Source: Actinomycetota bacterium
Lineage (GTDB): Bacteria; Actinomycetota; Actinomycetes; S36-B12
DNA length: 54,654 bases
Direction of reading: 5' to 3'
Assembly: GCA_947449035.1 (NCBI GenBank)
Contig: CANFQC010000011.1
Coordinates: forward strand, 1 to 54,654
Part shown: positions 2,658-49,244 of the stretch, one piece after another
How positions within the stretch are numbered: position 1 is the first letter of the stretch
Layout: each line of letters opens with the position of its first letter
Made by a program: the position numbers and the translations under genes
Notes under the pieces: generated by a model
What the model was told of the DNA's origin: nothing
Database searches by the model: none
What the model saw: only the letters and a program-made list of their open reading frames with translations

Positions 2658-3305
2658 ATGTATAACGGACGAGTCCAGGTCGCTGGTCCGGCCGATGTCC
2701 GGGAACTCCCCGGCTTGGTGATCAGCAAGATTGCCGTGGGGCCGTACAACAACAATTCCTATCTGCTCCGGTGTGCTTCCACAGGAGCCTCGCTCCTGAT
2801 AGATGCCGCGGCAGAGTCAGATCGTCTCCTCGGCCTGGTCGGGGATGGCTCGCTCGACTACGTGCTCACGACGCATCGGCATGCCGACCATTGGCAAGCC
2901 CTCGGTGCGGTCGTGGCCGCCACAGGTGCACGAACGATGGCAGGAACCATCGATGCGGTCGAGATTCCCATCACCACCGACGTGGCTCTTTCCGGTGGAG
3001 CTGAAATTGCCCTCGGTGAGGTGACCTTGTCGGTATTCGAGATCGCTGGTCACACTGAGGGCTCCATCAGCGTCCTCTATGACGATCCCGAGGGTCACGG
3101 TCATCTCTTCACGGGGGATTGTCTTTTCCCGGGGGGAATTGGTCGAACGCTGAACGAGGAAGAGTTCGACTCGCTCTACAACGGCGTGGTGAGCGAGTTC
3201 TTCTCACTTCCCGACGAAACCTGGGTCTACCCAGGCCACGGACATGACACGACTATCGGCGTTGAGCGGCCGCATCTCGAGGAGTGGCTCTCACGCCGCT
3301 GGTGA
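2658..3305 (+). CDS. Metallo-beta-lactamase-fold hydrolase, glyoxalase II-like
   Basis: A 215-residue protein of the MBL superfamily. The metal-binding motif is visible as HRHADH at residues 73-78, a slight variant of HxHxDH. Further ligands fit the His in AGHTEGS, the Asp in FTGDCLF and the His in YPGHGHD, the usual order for glyoxalase II-like thiolester hydrolases. The substrate cannot be read from sequence; hydroxyacylglutathione or a mycothiol/bacillithiol analogue is only a family-level guess. The ATG at 2658 follows GGAGG at 2649-2653; another ATG four bases earlier is out of frame. It faces away from uvrA and converges on the DinB-like gene with one base between stops. The position beside uvrA is conserved in many actinobacteria. 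Confidence 0.88.
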
Positions 3306-3306
3306 A

Positions 3307-3789
3307 TCAGTCATCCAGAAAGGTCCAGAGATCGTATGAGTCGAGATCCAAGCCTGTGAATCCCCCCGCACGCAGCGCAGAGTCAATTTGGGAACGGTGC
3401 TCGGTGGAATGGTAGCAAGCCTGAGCAAGAATCATCGCGCGGGTGACACGCAGTTCGCGGCCACCGTCGTCAACGATGAGAGCTTCATCCGCTGAGGACG
3501 CTTGAGCCAGCAGCGAGTTGTTGAGCGAAGCTAGTTCGTGGTTTAGCTGGTCAACGTCAGTCCTGTTTCGAGGTGCGGAAATTTCCAACATCGGAGCGGC
3601 CGTGAGGCAATACCTGTACCACTGAGCACCGTCGACAATATGTGCGATCAGTTCGGCCATGGTTCTTTCACCTTCGCCAGTTGCGTAGGTGAGAGCCTCG
3701 GGAACATCCCAAATCGGTTCCGACAGCAGCCGAGCGTCTGCCCAGACAAGGTGTCGCAGTGCAGTGGTCATGTCAGGCATGGAAGTCAT
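3307..3789 (-). CDS. DinB-like four-helix protein
   Basis: A 160-residue protein with the look of the DinB/YfiT-like superfamily, which includes mycothiol-dependent enzymes. Three histidines suit its metal triad: H50 (in IAHIVDGAQWY) and H127 and H131 (in CYHSTEHRSQ). The last two, with spacing HxxxH late in the protein, are typical of the fold. Actual chemistry is unknown: the family includes metal-dependent thiol transferases and proteins without assigned function. Its ATG overlaps the terC stop as ATGA (3786-3789), so it is translationally coupled and last in a uvrB-terC-dinB-like run. It should not be confused with DNA polymerase IV, also called DinB. Its 3' end is one base from that of the convergent hydrolase. 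Confidence 0.75.
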   Translation of the reverse strand: MTSMPDMTTALRHLVWADARLLSEPIWDVPEALTYATGEGERTMAELIAHIVDGAQWYRYCLTAAPMLEISAPRNRTDVDQLNHELASLNNSLLAQASSADEALIVDDGGRELRVTRAMILAQACYHSTEHRSQIDSALRAGGFTGLDLDSYDLWTFLDD

Positions 3790-4730
3790 CTTTCCAATTC
3801 ACGAGACGGGCGAAGGCTCAGAAGTGTGGTCCCGACGAGAATTCCCACGATCACGACCAGTGAGAGCCAGACGGGCACCAAGGGCACGTTCCAACCGAGA
3901 ACCGAATGGCAGGCCTCAAGCAACAACTTGATAGCGATGAAGACGAGGATTAGAGCTATTCCCTTGTTCAAGTGCCTGAGCTTTGTGATCAAATCCCGGA
4001 TCAGGAAGTAGAGCTGCCGCAGACCCATCAGGGCAAAGGCATTCGCCGCGAAGACCAGGAAGGCTTCGCTCGTGATACCGAAAACTGCCGGGATCGAATC
4101 AAGCGCGAAGAGAAGATCGGTTGTGCCGATCGCAATCATGACCATGGCCAGCGGCGTCAGGTACCGCTTCCCTGAAATGCGAGTGACCAGATGTGTGCCG
4201 TCATACTCCTGAGTCGTCGGAACCTTCGAAGAGATCATGCGAACCAAGCGATTCGGCTCGGGATCAGGCTCCTCGTCACCGCCCGTCCAGACTTTCCATG
4301 CGGTGAGAAGGAGGAAAGCTGCAAAGAGGAAGAAGATGCCCTGGAATCGGTGAATGACCTCTGCGCCGATCACGATGAGGATTCCGCGCAATACGAGAGC
4401 GATCACGATGCCGACGAGGAGAACGCGATGTTGCAGTGCTGCGGGCACCGCAAAGCTCGTCATGATCACCAGGAACACGAAGAGGTTATCGACGCTCAGC
4501 GAATACTCGGTGAGGTATCCGGCCACGAACTGACCAGAGTAGGAGGGCCCATACACGACACCGACGATTACCGCGAAGACTCCGGCGAGACCCACGTAGA
4601 AGGCGATCCAGCGCGACGCTTCGCGGGCCGAGAAGTCGTGAGGCTTTCGATCCACGATGAACAGATCGATCACGATGATCGCCACGAGTACGACGAGAGT
4701 GATGACCCATGCCAAGGGTGACACGGTCAT
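3786..4730 (-). CDS. TerC-family integral membrane protein
   Basis: A 314-residue polytopic protein of the TerC/Alx family, associated with tellurite resistance and, in studied members, manganese export linked to protein metalation. Visible signatures are the repeated acidic membrane motifs: [10 protein letters not shown] near the N-terminus, [14 protein letters not shown], and [18 protein letters not shown], where conserved Asp/Glu within helices are thought to bind metal. About seven to nine hydrophobic segments are spread through the length, with a cytoplasmic loop (residues about 150-180) rich in Glu and Pro. Its ATG overlaps the uvrB stop (ATGA, 4727-4730) and its stop overlaps the DinB-like start, implying one transcript with uvrB. 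No manganese riboswitch-like leader is possible in this arrangement because there is no intergenic space. Confidence 0.9.
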
Positions 4731-42672: not shown

Positions 42673-43556
42673 AGGTCGCTCACCCACACCTTTTGCATCA
42701 TGTGCCAATCGGTCGGATGCTTCTGGATACCGTCACAGAGAGCGTCTGCAAGTCCTTGGCACATCGACGCGATCCGCACTGCAGTCTCGCCCTCAGCAGG
42801 TATCGGGACTGCGGGATACACCTGACCGCGGAGCATGTCCCCGTCAAACCACATCGACACGGGGTACAGCGGAGCCCCAGTCATGATCGACAGGAGAGCC
42901 GGTCCGCCAGGGATACGTGCCGTTTCGCCGAACATCTGCACATCAATCCCATTTCGACCGACATCGCGATCTCCCAGCAGCGCAACGAGGCCGCCGCTTT
43001 TCAGGGTACGTGCGAGCGAACGAATCACGTCAGGTGAACCGTGCGGTACGACATCCATCCCGAGGGTGCGGCGGTAATCAAGAAACTGGTTGAACACGCC
43101 CTCTGGCTTGAGTCTCTCGGCAACCGTGGTGACGCTTCCGTATCGAAGTGCAGCCCACGCGCCGGCGTGATCCCAGTTAGCCATATGACCCGGGGCCATG
43201 ATGATTCCTTGGCCAGAATTGATCGCGGCATCCATGACTTCATGACCTTGCAGGTCAAACGTCGATGAAATTCTCGAGTGGCTCCAGGCCGGCAATCGGA
43301 ACGCCTCATTCCAGTAGCGCAAGTAACTACGCATTCCTTGACGACTGAGTTCTCGAATCTCATCGGGTGAGAGGCCAGGTTGGACTCGCGATAAATTCTT
43401 TTCAAGCTGGCGTACCGATTCGCCATCCTTGCGCCAGGCGCGATCTGCAAGCCGCCGGAACAGGGCGTCGGATGCACCCTCTGGCATCTTCTTGACTGCG
43501 CGCCAACCGAGCCCGAAGGCAGCCTCCGTGGCGGCGTCGACGACCTCGGCCTTCAT
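42669..43556 (-). CDS. patA: PIM acyltransferase PatA-like
   Basis: LpxL/HtrB-type acyltransferase, expected to acylate the mannose of phosphatidylinositol mannosides. The 295 residues contain the H-x4-D catalytic motif as H124-D129 in GHMANWDHAG, plus ALLGDRDVGRNGIDVQ and GGPALLSIMTGAPLYPVSMW, typical of the family. It has no obvious membrane helix but several amphipathic ones. It overlaps pgsA (ATGA, 43553-43556) and pimA (GTGA, 42669-42672), so all three are translationally coupled. Confidence 0.88.
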   Translation of the reverse strand: MKAEVVDAATEAAFGLGWRAVKKMPEGASDALFRRLADRAWRKDGESVRQLEKNLSRVQPGLSPDEIRELSRQGMRSYLRYWNEAFRLPAWSHSRISSTFDLQGHEVMDAAINSGQGIIMAPGHMANWDHAGAWAALRYGSVTTVAERLKPEGVFNQFLDYRRTLGMDVVPHGSPDVIRSLARTLKSGGLVALLGDRDVGRNGIDVQMFGETARIPGGPALLSIMTGAPLYPVSMWFDGDMLRGQVYPAVPIPAEGETAVRIASMCQGLADALCDGIQKHPTDWHMMQKVWVSDL

Positions 43557-44167
43557 GGACGCAGTTGTCCGCGAACTGTCCAGATGCGCTGGATTACCGT
43601 AATGAATCCGAGAACGCCGAGCCCCCAGAGCGCGATCGGGAGGACATAGGGAACGCCGAAACCGGTAATGAAGACTGCGAGCAGGACGACGATCAGGCGC
43701 TCGGCACGTTCGGCGATTCCCACGTTTGCAGTTGCGCCAACTGCCTCAGCCCTGGCCTTCGCATACGAGGTCACCTGTCCCATAACCAAACACAGCAATG
43801 CTGCGGCAACCACGCCAACTTGGTCATTGATGGCTCCCCAGAGCACGATTCCGCCGAAGATGGCTCCGTCTGCCATGCGATCCAAGGTGGCGTCAAGGAA
43901 GTTTCCCCACGGTCCGCTGGTGCCGCGCATACGCGCCATGGTGCCGTCCAGCAAGTCGCTGAACGCAAAGAGCGTAATCAGGAGCGGTCCAAGGATGAAT
44001 CGTCCGGTCGGGAAGCAGATCAAAGCCGTGGCTACCACCAGAACCGTGCCGAGAACCGTGATCGCGTCAGGTGAGACATGCATGCGCAGCAGGAGACGAG
44101 CGGGCGGTTCGAGTACCGCGCTCATCGCCTTACGCGCATTCGGATTGTTCAGCATGAATCTCCCCAT
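43553..44167 (-). CDS. pgsA: CDP-alcohol phosphotransferase, PI(P) synthase
   Basis: Integral membrane enzyme that condenses CDP-diacylglycerol with inositol phosphate, in actinobacteria giving phosphatidylinositol phosphate. The 204 residues carry a perfect CDP-alcohol signature D-x2-DG-x2-AR-x8-G-x3-D-x3-D: D71, D74-G75, A78-R79, G88, D92 and D96. About six membrane helices follow the usual layout. The neighbours patA and pimA identify it as the PI-type enzyme rather than PG-phosphate synthase. The start is ATG 44167; ATG 44155 is an alternative. It heads the 14-gene minus-strand run. Confidence 0.9.
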   Translation of the reverse strand: MGRFMLNNPNARKAMSAVLEPPARLLLRMHVSPDAITVLGTVLVVATALICFPTGRFILGPLLITLFAFSDLLDGTMARMRGTSGPWGNFLDATLDRMADGAIFGGIVLWGAINDQVGVVAAALLCLVMGQVTSYAKARAEAVGATANVGIAERAERLIVVLLAVFITGFGVPYVLPIALWGLGVLGFITVIQRIWTVRGQLRP

Positions 44168-44247: not shown

Positions 44248-44994
44248 GTGACCGACATCCGTGACGAGCTGAGCGTGCGAGTGGCAGGCATCGACGGCTC
44301 TGGCGTTCGCACTCTCATCGGAAACCTCTCCGGAACACTCCAGCCATCCTCTTCGGGTGAACGCATCTGGGATAGCTCCCGGATTGCCTTTTCTGCCGGT
44401 CGTCCCGACCTCATCGATTTCGAAGAAGTTGACGCACTCATTGTGGTGGTGTCTGCGCGACAGGGAGTTCCAGCAGCCATCACCCATCTCTGGATGTCAG
44501 CAGCGGAAGCAGGTATACCTGCATTCATCACGGTCACCCACCTTGACGATTCGACCGTTGATCTCGAAGAGGCGGCTGCAATGTGCATGCGCGCGCTCAA
44601 TGATGGCGGCGAGATCTTTATGCCGTGGTTGCCGATCCTCGATGACGACGAGGCAGTTTGCGGGTTCATCGATCTTCTGAGTGAGGAGATCGTGGACTGG
44701 AGTGACGGTGGCCCGGTCGTGCGCGCAAGTGAACAGCGTCACCAAGAACTCATCGAAGATGCTCGTGCCGAGTTGTGTGAATCAATCATGCTTGCCGTCG
44801 ATGACGACGAACTCTTCGCCCAGTACATGGCGGGTGACGCAATTGATGGTGAGGACATTGAGCATCACATGCTTGAGCAGATCAGCCGTGGTCTACGACA
44901 TCCGGTGTTCGGGACAGGCCTCTACCCGCATCTGCTGGGCGTTGGTCTCGTTCTCGACATGCTGGCTGGTCTAAGCGAAAGGCGTGCTGACTAA
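44248..44994 (+). CDS. Degenerate, domain-I-only EF-G2-like protein
   Basis: A 248-residue protein that follows the path of domain I of EF-G2-type translational GTPases but stops where domain II would begin. The P-loop position reads GIDGSGVRT (residues 14-22), with V20 and R21 in place of Lys and Thr/Ser. The switch II DxxG is replaced (SAGRPDLIDF), and the base-specificity NKxD is THLD (97-100). The framework is retained: VDALIVVVSARQGV, PAFITVTHLD, the G' insertion, YMAGDAIDGEDIEHHMLEQI and HPVFGTGLYPHLLGVGLVLDML. GTP binding looks improbable. The gene has a GTG start, is divergent from pgsA, and its stop overlaps the HIT stop. I recall a full-length EF-G2 gene near pgsA-thrS in streptomycetes. 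Confidence 0.6.
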   Translation: MTDIRDELSVRVAGIDGSGVRTLIGNLSGTLQPSSSGERIWDSSRIAFSAGRPDLIDFEEVDALIVVVSARQGVPAAITHLWMSAAEAGIPAFITVTHLDDSTVDLEEAAAMCMRALNDGGEIFMPWLPILDDDEAVCGFIDLLSEEIVDWSDGGPVVRASEQRHQELIEDARAELCESIMLAVDDDELFAQYMAGDAIDGEDIEHHMLEQISRGLRHPVFGTGLYPHLLGVGLVLDMLAGLSERRAD

Positions 44995-45497
44995 CTCCAA
45001 GCACCAGCTAAAAGGTCACGAGACTCCCCCAGCAATTGCGGCATGGTCTTTGTGCCACTGATAACTGGTAGGAAATTCGTGTCGCCACCCCATCGTGGAA
45101 CAACATGCTGATGCAAGTGTGCGGCGATGCCGGCACCAGCGAGCGAACCCTGGTTCATTCCGATGTTAAAGCCGTGTGCCCCAGAAACTTCGCGTAGAAC
45201 TTCCATGCTGCGCTTGGTAAAGGAGGCAAGTTCCGCGGTCTCCTCAGTCGTGAGATCCGTGTAGTCAGCAACGTGGCGATAGGTGCAGATCAACATGTGG
45301 CCAGAGTTGTAGGGGTAGAGGTTCATGATGGCGAAAACCCAAGTTCCCTTCGCCACAATGAGCGACTCGGAGTCAGGGTGATTCGGCGCATTGCAGAAAG
45401 GACATTCCTCACCTGCCTCGCCGTGAGTTGGACGACCCTCACCCTTGAGGTACGTCATCCGATGAGGGGTCCACAGGCGGTCCCAGGCCTCAGTCAT
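44991..45497 (-). CDS. HIT-domain nucleotide hydrolase or phosphorylase
   Basis: Histidine-triad protein of 168 residues. The triad is H127-x-H129-x-H131 (AHLHQHVVP); a Cys pair in EECPFC (31-35) and the LYPYNSGHMLI segment are typical of the actinobacterial branch, whose mycobacterial member acts on Ap4A. ATG 45497 follows the thrS stop by one base; the open frame upstream to 45632 lies within thrS. Its stop overlaps the convergent EF-G2-like gene by 3-4 bases. thrS-HIT-pgsA is a conserved actinobacterial string. Confidence 0.88.
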   Translation of the reverse strand: MTEAWDRLWTPHRMTYLKGEGRPTHGEAGEECPFCNAPNHPDSESLIVAKGTWVFAIMNLYPYNSGHMLICTYRHVADYTDLTTEETAELASFTKRSMEVLREVSGAHGFNIGMNQGSLAGAGIAAHLHQHVVPRWGGDTNFLPVISGTKTMPQLLGESRDLLAGAWS

Positions 45498-45498
45498 C

Positions 45499-47439
45499 TC
45501 AGACCTGAGCACGAGAGTCGACTGCGGCCACGATCTCCGCGATTGCTTCCTCAATAGGCACACCGTTCTTCTGCGTGCCGTCTCGGTATCGGAAGGACAC
45601 AGCCCCTGCCTGAGCATCCTCGTCGCCGGCAATCAGCATGTAAGGAACCTTGGATTTCTGTGCCGTACGAATCTTCTTTTGCATTCGATCGTCGCTGGCA
45701 TCGACCTCGACGCGTATGCCCGCCGCGCGAAGCTTTTCGGCAACGTCATACATGTAATCGTTGTGAGCCTCAGTGATCGGAATGCCGATCACCTGCACCG
45801 GAGCCAACCATGGAGGGAATGCTCCCGCATAGTGCTCAAGTAGCACGGCGAAGAACCTCTCGATCGAGCCGAATAGAGCCCGGTGAATCATGACAGGGCG
45901 CTGGCGAGTGCCGTCAGCCGCTTGGTACTGGAGATCAAAGAGCTCAGGCAGGTTGAAGTCCACCTGGATGGTGGACATCTGCCATGTACGACCAATGGCA
46001 TCTTTCGCCTGAACCGAGATCTTCGGGCCGTAAAACGCGGCACCACCCTCGTCAAGAATGAGATCGAGACCCTGCTTCTCTGCGGCAATGCGCAGCGTTT
46101 CGGTCGCTTCCGCCCAGATCTCATCACTACCGACCGACTTCTCGGGATCCCTGGTGGAGAGTTCAAGATAGAAGTCATTAAGTCCGTAGTCGCGCAGAAG
46201 ATCCAGCACGAAGGTCAAGAGACCGTCGAGCTCAGTAGGCATCTGCTCCTTGGTGCAATAGATATGAGCATCATCTTGAGTGAAGCCGCGGGCGCGAGTC
46301 AGGCCTTGCACGACGCCTGACTTCTCGTAGCGATAAACGGTCCCGAACTCGAAGAGTCGAAGCGGTAGTTCACGGTACGAACGACCCCGTGCATCGAAGA
46401 TGAGGTTGTGCATCGGGCAGTTCATGGGCTTGAGGTAGTAGTCAGCCCCCTGCTTTCGCACGTTTCCAGCAGCGTCGTACTCGGTATCGAGTTGCATGGG
46501 TGGGTACATGCCTTCGGAATACCAATTGAGGTGCTGGGATTTCTCGAACAGTGCGCCCTTGGTGATGTGGGGGGTATTGACGAACTCGTAGCCCGCCTCG
46601 TCGTGGCGCTTGCGTGAATAGTCCTCCATCACGCGACGGATGACTCCACCCTTGGGATGAAAAACCGCAAGGCCTGAACCAATCTCGTCCGGAAACGAAA
46701 AGAGGTCGAGCTCGGCACCGAGCCGACGATGATCGCGGCGTTCGGCTTCTTCGAGGAAAGTCAGATAGGCCTTCAGGTCATCTTTTGATGGCCATGCAGT
46801 GCCGTAGACACGCTGCAACTGCTCGTTCTTCTGGTCACCTAGCCAATAGGCAGCGGCAGTACGCATCAGTTTTATGGCGTTCTGCGGGATGTAGCGAGTA
46901 TCGGGAACATGCGGGCCACGACACAGGTCTCCCCAGCAGCGCTCGCCGGTCTTGGCATCGACGTTCTCGTAAATCGTAAGTTCCGTGCCACCGACCTCCA
47001 TGACATCGGCACCACCCTCGCTGCCGATCAGCCGCAGTTTGAACGGTTCATTCGCTAGTTCGGCAACCGCATCAGCCTCATCGACAACGCGGCGAGTGAA
47101 ACGTTGACCTGCCTTGATGATGGCAACCATTCGCTTCTCGAGAACCTCGAGGTCGTCAGGGGTGAAGGGGGTCTCGACAGAGAAGTCGTAGTAGAAGCCG
47201 TCCTTGATGGGCGGACCAATGCCCAATTTGGCTTCAGGGAAAGTGTCCTGAACGGCCTGAGCCAACACATGGGCAGTCGAGTGCCGAAGGACAGCAAGAC
47301 CCTCTGGAGTGTCGACGGTAACCGGCTCTACGACATCGGTTTCCGACACGATGGTCGAAAGGTCCTTAAGTTCACCATTGACTCGGGCCACGACGACGGA
47401 CTTGTCGCCACCCACGAGATCAAACGCGGTTGTGGCCAC
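45499..47439 (-). CDS. thrS: Threonyl-tRNA synthetase
   Basis: Class II synthetase of 646 residues. The editing domain begins [14 protein letters not shown]; catalytic motifs include [11 protein letters not shown] with the zinc cysteine, [20 protein letters not shown] (motif 2), and the anticodon-binding domain from about 540. The N-terminal TGS domain is short: only [14 protein letters not shown] and following strands remain, and about 20 residues of the first hairpin seen in relatives are missing. An in-frame TAA nine codons upstream rules out a much longer start; GTG 47439 has GGAGAG upstream. It is followed directly by HIT. Confidence 0.95.
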
Positions 47440-47487
47440 ATCTCTCCATTCATCTGGATACCGCAGTTACCCCTGCATGTATCTCGG

Positions 47488-47560
<73 letters not shown>

Positions 47561-47741
47561 GAAGCGCCATGACTCTACCCCAGCCAACTATTCCTCGAAA
47601 ATTCAACCCGTTCACTCGGCACTCGTGGGCGGCCAGCACCATCGCCGCTGTCCCCAGACAAAAGAAAGTGCGGAAGCGTGGTGTCACTCCTGAAGTAACC
47701 CTTATGACTACCCTTGAATCATCTTCTAGATGGAGGTTTAC

Positions 47742-49244
47742 ATGCGAAATCATCGCAGATTCGTACAATTCGGTGTTGCTGGTCTAGCCACAACGGCTGT
47801 GCTTTCAGCAGCTCTAGGGTTGACTGCGTCTCCCGCTTCAGCCGCAAGCGTCTCAGGATACGGAAGCGGTCCGGTGGGCGCACCACAACAAATCAACGTG
47901 ACGGGCGCCCAAGGCTGCGGCGCAATGACCTTCACTGCCGTTTACCAGAACTCGTCGCAGCAGTCCGTTCCATCGGTCTTCCCGGATGCAAATGGAAACG
48001 CCACGATTTACTGGTCCCCGAACGCTGCAGGAGCAGTGACCTCTGCTTCGATCGGAAGCACTTGCACTCCGATCGACCTTGGATCAGCCAACATTTCCAA
48101 GGTCGGGACACTCACAACGATCGCTGCGCCTAATGTCGCCGTCGTCGGACAAGCGACGATGATCACCGTAAACGTGCAATCGGCCAGTCCGAGCGCCTAC
48201 TCCCCTACGGGTCACGTCACAGTCCGCGACGGCAATGGGAACGTAGTGACCGGATTTGGACTCACGCCTAACGGAACCGCAACGTCTTTCGCGTACTGGT
48301 ACTGGACACCGCCCGCATCAGGCAGCTACGTCTTCCAAGCCACGTACGATGGTGACAGCAATGCGAACGGCTCAACATCGGCCCAAGATGTTGTCTCGGC
48401 CTCACCGAGCGGAAACACCATCACTTTGGTTGTTCCAGGAACACTCACGGTGGGTATCCCCACGAACCTCAAGGCCACTTTCGTGCCCACCACAATCCAA
48501 GGATCAGTGGGATTCACATTTAATGGTGCCCCGATTAGCGCATCCGTTCCAATTGTTAACGGTCAGGCAAACTTCCAGTGGACCCCAACCGTTGCAGGGG
48601 CTGCAGTTCTTGGTGCGAGTTACATGACCAACGGAGGAGCCAGCGGATCAACGTCGGACAAGGTCAATATCGTGGCGGGTCCCGCACAACAGGACGTCAT
48701 CACTTTGACTCAACCCGGCTGGGGCACCTGGGCCCCAAATGGTCAGTACAACCTGCCTAACGGCACCAGCACGACCATGACGGCCACCACTTTGTCAGGG
48801 TCGCCTGTCGTCTTGACCGAGACGGGACCTTGCTCGATCACTAATCGACTCACGATCGTCGTGAACGTTGGCTCAGGTCAATGCAACATCCAAGCAAGCT
48901 CAACGGGTGGTAAGGGTTATTCGGCAGTCACTTACGGCTACACGGTCAACGCGATTCCGGGTACTCAGACGGCGATCCTGTCGGCCCCGAACTCAGGAAA
49001 TCTGACGAAGGGCCGCACGTACGTGATCGAGGCACCCGGACAGGTTGACACGAATGCCGGTCAAAACATCAGTTGGAAGATCACGTCAGGCAAGAACTCG
49101 GTGTGCAAGCTCAGCTACCCCTCTGATGGCTCGGTGAAGCTGAAGATGGTCAACAAGGGCACTTGCAACATCAAGGGCACGGCACCCGGTGTCCCGGGCC
49201 AGTGGAACGCATACAGCGTGACGCGAAGCTACAAGGTGAAGTAG
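47742..49244 (+). CDS. Secreted Ig-like repeat protein
   Basis: A 500-residue exported protein of unknown role. GGAGG at 47732-47736 favours ATG 47742 over the ATG at 47730. A signal peptide is clear: basic MRNHRRF, hydrophobic core, and a SPASA|ASV cleavage site near residue 35. The mature part is beta-rich, Thr/Ser/Gly/Asn-rich, with bacterial Ig-like features (about 135-210 around YWYWTPPASGSYVFQATYDG, and 225-310 around FQWTPTVAGAAVLGASY). Two C-terminal repeats share a pattern Cys-x-(I/L)...G-x-C-N-I (PCSITN...GQCNIQ and VCKLSY...GTCNIKG). No LPxTG or C-terminal anchor is visible. It is monocistronic, between tRNA-Val and pabC, and closed by a strong terminator. A surface or adhesion role is plausible but unproven. 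Confidence 0.8.
   Translation: MRNHRRFVQFGVAGLATTAVLSAALGLTASPASAASVSGYGSGPVGAPQQINVTGAQGCGAMTFTAVYQNSSQQSVPSVFPDANGNATIYWSPNAAGAVTSASIGSTCTPIDLGSANISKVGTLTTIAAPNVAVVGQATMITVNVQSASPSAYSPTGHVTVRDGNGNVVTGFGLTPNGTATSFAYWYWTPPASGSYVFQATYDGDSNANGSTSAQDVVSASPSGNTITLVVPGTLTVGIPTNLKATFVPTTIQGSVGFTFNGAPISASVPIVNGQANFQWTPTVAGAAVLGASYMTNGGASGSTSDKVNIVAGPAQQDVITLTQPGWGTWAPNGQYNLPNGTSTTMTATTLSGSPVVLTETGPCSITNRLTIVVNVGSGQCNIQASSTGGKGYSAVTYGYTVNAIPGTQTAILSAPNSGNLTKGRTYVIEAPGQVDTNAGQNISWKITSGKNSVCKLSYPSDGSVKLKMVNKGTCNIKGTAPGVPGQWNAYSVTRSYKVK

What the first reader, a model, noticed from the sequence alone, without database searches (positions are those of the whole stretch)
44248..44994. Free-standing, P-loop-less remnant of an EF-G2-like domain I
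The 248-residue product follows EF-G domain I (G plus the G' insertion) to its very end, including the closing segment that in EF-G reads as a G-S-A...G-V-x-x-L-L-D pattern. The P-loop Lys and Ser/Thr are V20 and R21, DxxG is gone and NKxD is THLD. The frame is clean and bounded by neighbouring genes, so it is not a fresh frameshift. A retained non-GTPase fold next to thrS-HIT-pgsA may be a ribosome-binding regulator or decoy.
Basis: partly seen in the sequence, partly recalled or inferred. Interest (0 to 1): 0.6.

Follow-up and report, generated by a model that had tools for sequence, protein, structure and literature searches.

The report
GTPase-dead remnant of elongation factor EF-G2
In freshwater actinobacteria of the order Nanopelagicales, the gene for the ribosome factor EF-G2 has been cut down again and again to just its first domain, or first two, with the GTP-handling parts erased; yet natural selection still preserves the leftover protein, so it probably does a GTP-independent job that nobody has described.

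Summary
The 248-aa ORF at 44248-44994 is EF-G2 domain I, core plus G' insert, with P-loop, switch I, DxxG and NKxD destroyed. Its model superposes on EF-G residues 1-285 at Z 26.

It is not an isolated relic. The same slot between HIT and pgsA holds full-length EF-G2 in some Nanopelagicales genera, a truncated form in about 55 of 166 genomes of the order (mostly 190-420 aa), or nothing, with HIT and pgsA 3-39 bp apart. Neighbour-gene phylogeny needs about eight changes between full and short. The short forms are under purifying selection: dN/dS 0.03-0.27, with no indels in most pairs.

Retention is selective. Columns invariant in full EF-G2s survive at 21% in nucleotide motifs but 61% in G'.

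Best reading: a pseudo-GTPase kept as a nucleotide-independent binding module, most likely facing the ribosomal stalk through the acidic G' helix. Identity and retention are shown; the binding partner is inferred. Novelty: new variant of a known kind.

The parts
44248..44994 (+). P-loop-less EF-G2 domain I protein (248 aa), GTG start
44287..44316 (+). degenerate G1/P-loop, residues 14-23 (GIDGSGVRTL; Lys and Thr lost)
44389..44406 (+). position of G3/switch II, residues 48-53 (DTPG lost; switch I deleted before it)
44536..44547 (+). degenerate G4, residues 97-100 (THLD instead of NKxD)
44629..44892 (+). G' insert, residues 128-215; holds P129, G139, L143, H165, R173, L176 kept in nearly all lineages, and the acidic helix at about 163-194
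44938..44955 (+). G5/closing segment (G231-V-G-L-V-L), nearly invariant Gly
43553..44167 (-). pgsA, left border of the slot (divergent)
44991..45632 (-). HIT-family protein, right border of the slot (convergent, 4-bp overlap); the listed ORF is probably too long at its N-terminus
45499..47439 (-). thrS, conserved context

Best explanation
The gene descends from a full-length EF-G2 (EFG II) that sat between HIT and pgsA in ancestors within Nanopelagicales. In this lineage, and independently in several others of the order, domains III-V (here also II) were lost and the nucleotide pocket was erased. What remains is a folded, strongly acidic pseudo-GTPase domain whose G' insert is preferentially preserved. 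Shown: origin, locus orthology, loss of motifs, predicted fold, purifying selection, selective retention of G'. Inferred: it works without GTP as a protein-binding module. The most likely target is the C-terminal domain of the ribosomal stalk protein bL12, which EF-G's acidic G' helix contacts. By occupying the stalk it would compete with or fine-tune translational GTPases (EF-G1, EF-Tu, IF2), perhaps under starvation, when EF-G2 paralogues are used elsewhere.
For: EF-G2 profile E 2.5e-27. Same slot holds full-length EF-G2 in sister genera. AlphaFold model with Z 26 to EF-G domain I. Intact ORFs fill the slot in the ancient lineages, with stops within 31 bp of, or overlapping, the HIT stop. 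dN/dS 0.03-0.27 and third-position excess with p from 7e-3 to 7e-82. EF-G2-invariant columns kept at 0.61 in G' against 0.21 in nucleotide motifs, permutation p < 5e-5. The G' helix region stays acidic (6-13 acidic, 0-6 basic residues) in every short form. G' acidic residues contact L7/L12 and are conserved in EFG II (PMC3150367, PMC8446442). Mycobacterial EF-G2 has been solved on the 70S ribosome (9k0z).
Against: No binding or expression data. Individual L12-contact acidic positions are only partly kept (E178 0.49; the D185-187 cluster varies). The best-kept residues (P129, G139, L143, L176, G231) look structural, so G' retention may reflect folding. The g7 form (190 aa) lacks the N-terminal half of the G core. 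Some lineages lack the gene altogether, so the function is dispensable. dS is near saturation for the window's own pair (1.68).
Confidence: 0.5

Rival explanations
1. Retained module with a non-ribosomal partner: the domain I fold was co-opted as a scaffold or regulator of another protein, and the kept G' residues are the fold's core.
For: The best-kept columns are mostly Pro/Gly/Leu. Domains II-V, which make most ribosome contacts, are lost. EF-G2-invariant H165 is kept in all short forms but is Leu in the genome's EF-G1, so the contact may be specific to EF-G2.
Against: The acidic G' helix is maintained in all lineages. The parent protein is a ribosome factor (9k0z). No candidate partner gene was identified next to it beyond the conserved operon.
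Confidence: 0.3
2. Slow decay: EF-G2 became dispensable and the gene is being lost in steps (truncation, pocket loss, deletion), with residual constraint mainly against misfolded protein.
For: States range from full length through I-III and I-II to I only and clean absence. G027 and G006 look like young truncations with about 500 bp of leftover DNA. The short forms mostly evolve faster than their neighbours.
Against: Omega 0.03-0.27 over deep divergence, with no frameshifts in about 20 f6 and 11 g2 sequences. Truncation points follow domain borders, I or I+II, and the 375-aa form is predicted to fold as two domains. Retention is patterned, not uniform.
Confidence: 0.15
3. An ancient short paralogue, present beside full-length EF-G2, was sorted by lineage instead of many independent truncations.
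For: Most short forms lie apart from full-length ones in the domain I tree.
Against: That tree carries long-branch warnings. With the longest branches removed, the AU test does not reject short plus full g14 forms as one clade (p 0.40). No searched genome was seen to carry both, and both occupy the same slot.
Confidence: 0.1

Closest known systems
EF-G2 / EFG II, actinobacterial (NCBIfam NF009377; M. smegmatis MsmEF-G-2, M. tuberculosis FusA2)
   Same: homologous domain I with G' insert; orthologous locus to full-length EF-G2 in sister genera; G' acidic helix
   Different: domains II-V absent; G1, G2, G3 and G4 motifs lost, whereas EFG II keeps G1, G3 and G4 (PMC3150367) and MsmEF-G-2 still binds guanine nucleotides though it lacks ribosome-dependent GTPase activity
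PseudoGTPases, e.g. septins (PMC10731463) and p190RhoGAP domains (PMC5593906)
   Same: GTPase fold that lost pocket residues, in septins repeatedly and independently; kept for protein contacts
   Different: bacterial and derived from a translation factor; also lost whole domains; partner unknown
Bacteroides EF-G2 (fusA2; PMC6989115)
   Same: EF-G paralogue induced when carbon is limiting
   Different: full-length; regulated by BT4338; the passages read concern expression and colonisation, not a truncated G domain

Membership tests
EF-G2 (NF009377) | full-model score over the curated cut-off (890 bits) | tested here: not met
   95.6 bits, domain I only
EF-G2 (NF009377) | homology to EF-G2 domain I and orthologous genomic slot | tested here: met
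   E 2.5e-27; thrS-HIT-[EFG2]-pgsA-acyltransferase-pimA synteny
EFG II subfamily | conserved G1 GhxxxGKT, G3 DxPG, G4 NKxD (PMC3150367) | tested here: not met
   V20/R21, AGRP, THLD
EFG II subfamily | domains II-V | tested here: not met
   ORF ends with domain I and overlaps the HIT stop
EFG II subfamily | acidic G' helix contacting L7/L12 | tested here: inconclusive
   helix present and net acidic, individual positions partly changed; binding not testable here
Pfam PF00009 GTP_EFTU | score over gathering threshold 26.5 | tested here: not met
   21.7 bits
pseudoGTPase | GTPase fold retained | tested here: met
   model pLDDT 87; Z 26 to EF-G domain I; the model's alignment included EF-G2s
pseudoGTPase | loss of catalytic and nucleotide-binding motifs | tested here: met
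pseudoGTPase | no GTP binding or hydrolysis | not testable with these tools
   needs purified protein
pseudoGTPase | maintained by selection | tested here: met
   dN/dS and codon-position tests

The most novel reading that the evidence does not exclude
Nanopelagicales have repeatedly evolved a nucleotide-independent, stalk-binding translation regulator by stripping EF-G2 down to its G'-bearing domain I, with or without a minimal domain II. This would be a new class of stripped-down translational GTPase that controls factor recruitment to ribosomes in freshwater bacteria.
Probability: 0.25. Interest if true: 0.8.

Novelty: new variant of a known kind. Interest (0 to 1): 0.58.

Why it matters
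It shows a translational GTPase being converted many times, at one locus, into a selected non-GTPase domain, which amounts to a natural set of deletion experiments. Whatever survives in every lineage (above all the G' insert) marks the part of EF-G2 whose function does not need GTP, so the long-unclear role of EF-G2 becomes directly testable. The literature searches found no description of it, although most subscription papers are outside that library.

Tried and rejected
Fresh frameshift or pseudogene: rejected, because intact same-length homologues are under constraint. Chance ORF or antisense shadow ORF: rejected by EF-G2 homology, synteny and third-position excess. A hidden full-length EF-G2 elsewhere in this genome: not found; the other hits shown are the genome's EF-G1 (C30, 495 bits) and a weaker match on C31. 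Short forms outside the order: none clear in a class-wide sample of 394 genomes; one 341-aa frame, G187, matches only model positions 71-236, may be cut by a contig end, and was not followed up. The first genome-contig scan with the single protein found nothing. Using the gene tree alone to count truncations was rejected, because long branches attract, so the neighbour-gene tree was used. Sigma-70-type promoter scan: nothing, which is uninformative here.

Full report
OBSERVATION. The ORF 44248-44994 (+) encodes 248 aa and starts with GTG; an in-frame TAG lies two codons upstream. NCBIfam EF-G2 (NF009377) matches it at E 2.5e-27 over model positions 102-276 of 700. EF-G proper is weaker (6.8e-7), and Pfam GTP_EFTU falls below its cut-off.

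STRUCTURE. AlphaFold2 on an alignment of the window protein with 27 related sequences gave pLDDT 87 and pTM 0.86. Foldseek and VIA-align both give EF-G as the best match. The model superposes on EF-G residues 1-285 over 232-238 residues at Z about 26 and rmsd 2.6-2.9. The alignment contained real EF-G2 sequences, so the fold is partly imposed; the sequence homology is independent of that.

LOCUS. The gene lies on the + strand between HIT and pgsA, inside the - strand series thrS-HIT-pgsA-acyltransferase-pimA. That order is conserved across the sampled order. The slot has three states. (a) Full-length EF-G2 of about 700-780 aa, in genera g3, g6, g8 and g12, in two g14 genomes, and in families f4, f5 and f7. 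(b) A shortened gene. (c) No gene, with HIT and pgsA 3-39 bp apart, in g10, g13, most f3 and G043, whose EF-G2 lies elsewhere; one f4 genome without a match has a 150-bp gap. No searched genome was seen to carry both forms. The window's genome has no other EF-G2. Record titles of the same contigs place the group in Nanopelagicales.

EXTENT. Short forms: g1 248/248/228 aa (the window's genus); g7 189/190; g4 352; g11 261 and 419; g14 365-408 (six species); g2 347-362 (eleven intact, a twelfth with an assembly gap); f6 g19 315-364 (22 species seen, 20 sequences read); two f3 species; G006 459 and G027 474. That is about 55 of the 166 genomes held for the order. In a class-wide sample of 394 genomes no clear short form appeared outside the order. 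G006 keeps its GTPase motifs and G027 most of them; both have about 500 bp of leftover DNA before HIT, so they look young. In the other lineages measured the ORF ends within 31 bp of, or overlaps, the HIT stop.

ORIGINS. A tree of the neighbouring proteins needs eight changes between short and full, seven of them forced by well-supported branches. A domain I gene tree sets most short forms apart, but with strong long-branch warnings. After removing the longest branches, an AU test does not reject short and full g14 forms as one clade (p 0.40). Independent truncation is therefore favoured but not proved.

SELECTION. G000 against G002: 63% identity, no gaps, dN/dS about 0.18, codon-position differences 0.30/0.19/0.56 (chi-square p 1.4e-17). 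Omega was 0.03 in g14, 0.07 in g7 and 0.14-0.27 in g2, again mostly without indels. Five f6 pairs show the same third-position excess. The short forms mostly evolve faster than HIT, pgsA and the acyltransferase, but far from neutrally. dS is saturated in many pairs, so codon-position counts are the safer evidence.

WHAT IS KEPT. Of columns invariant in 13 full-length EF-G2s, six short lineages keep on average 21% in the nucleotide motifs and 61% in the G' insert (permutation p < 5e-5). Window residues P129, G139, L143, H165, R173, L176 and G231 are kept at 0.8-1.0. H165 is EF-G2-type (Leu in the genome's own EF-G1). The G' helix region is net acidic in every form. The g14 form keeps P-loop residues but lost switch I and DTPG. 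Its 375-aa model shows domain I plus a compact set of strands where domain II should be (pLDDT 84). Truncations therefore fall at domain borders.

MECHANISM. Shown: an EF-G2-derived, GTPase-dead, selectively maintained protein whose G' part is the most conserved. Inferred: it acts without nucleotide, by protein contact. In EF-G the acidic G' residues contact L7/L12, and this region is conserved in EFG II (PMC3150367; PMC8446442). [quoted passage not shown] smegmatis EF-G2-70S complex is in the PDB (9k0z). EF-G2 in Bacteroides is induced by carbon limitation (PMC6989115). A stalk-binding module that tunes factor recruitment is the most economical proposal. It is untested, and a non-ribosomal partner remains open.

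KNOWN OR NEW. It fails the defining tests of EF-G2 (score, motifs, domains) while descending from it. It fits the pseudoGTPase concept, for which recurrent independent loss is documented in septins (PMC10731463). Literature searches found no account of truncated EF-G2s in this order. I file it as a new variant of a known kind.

Noticed in passing
L120 (G043:C153:1-8000) and L179 (G043:C72:9500-16500): G043 (f6) has a full-length EF-G2 at another locus while HIT and pgsA are 5 bp apart: relocation or transfer of EF-G2.
   Followed up: partly
L116 (G027) 3230-4651 and L117 (G006) 3104-4480: Two apparently recent truncations of otherwise normal-looking EF-G2 (474 and 459 aa) with about 500 bp of leftover DNA: possible early stages of the reduction.
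   Followed up: partly
L083 (G019) and L084 (G008): Genus g7 keeps only a 190-aa form that starts near EF-G2 position 100; the HIT gene is no longer next to it.
   Followed up: partly
L159, L160, L163, L164, L165: g14 short forms keep a P-loop (GSGKT/S, GSGRS) but lack switch I and DTPG; they may bind but not switch on nucleotide.
   Followed up: partly
window 47730-49244 (+): 504-aa secreted-looking protein with Ig-like repeat segments beside a tRNA-Val gene (47486-47560).
   Followed up: no
L124 (G018) and L127 (G042): Extra DNA (about 0.8-3.2 kb) between full-length EF-G2 and HIT in some genomes.
   Followed up: no
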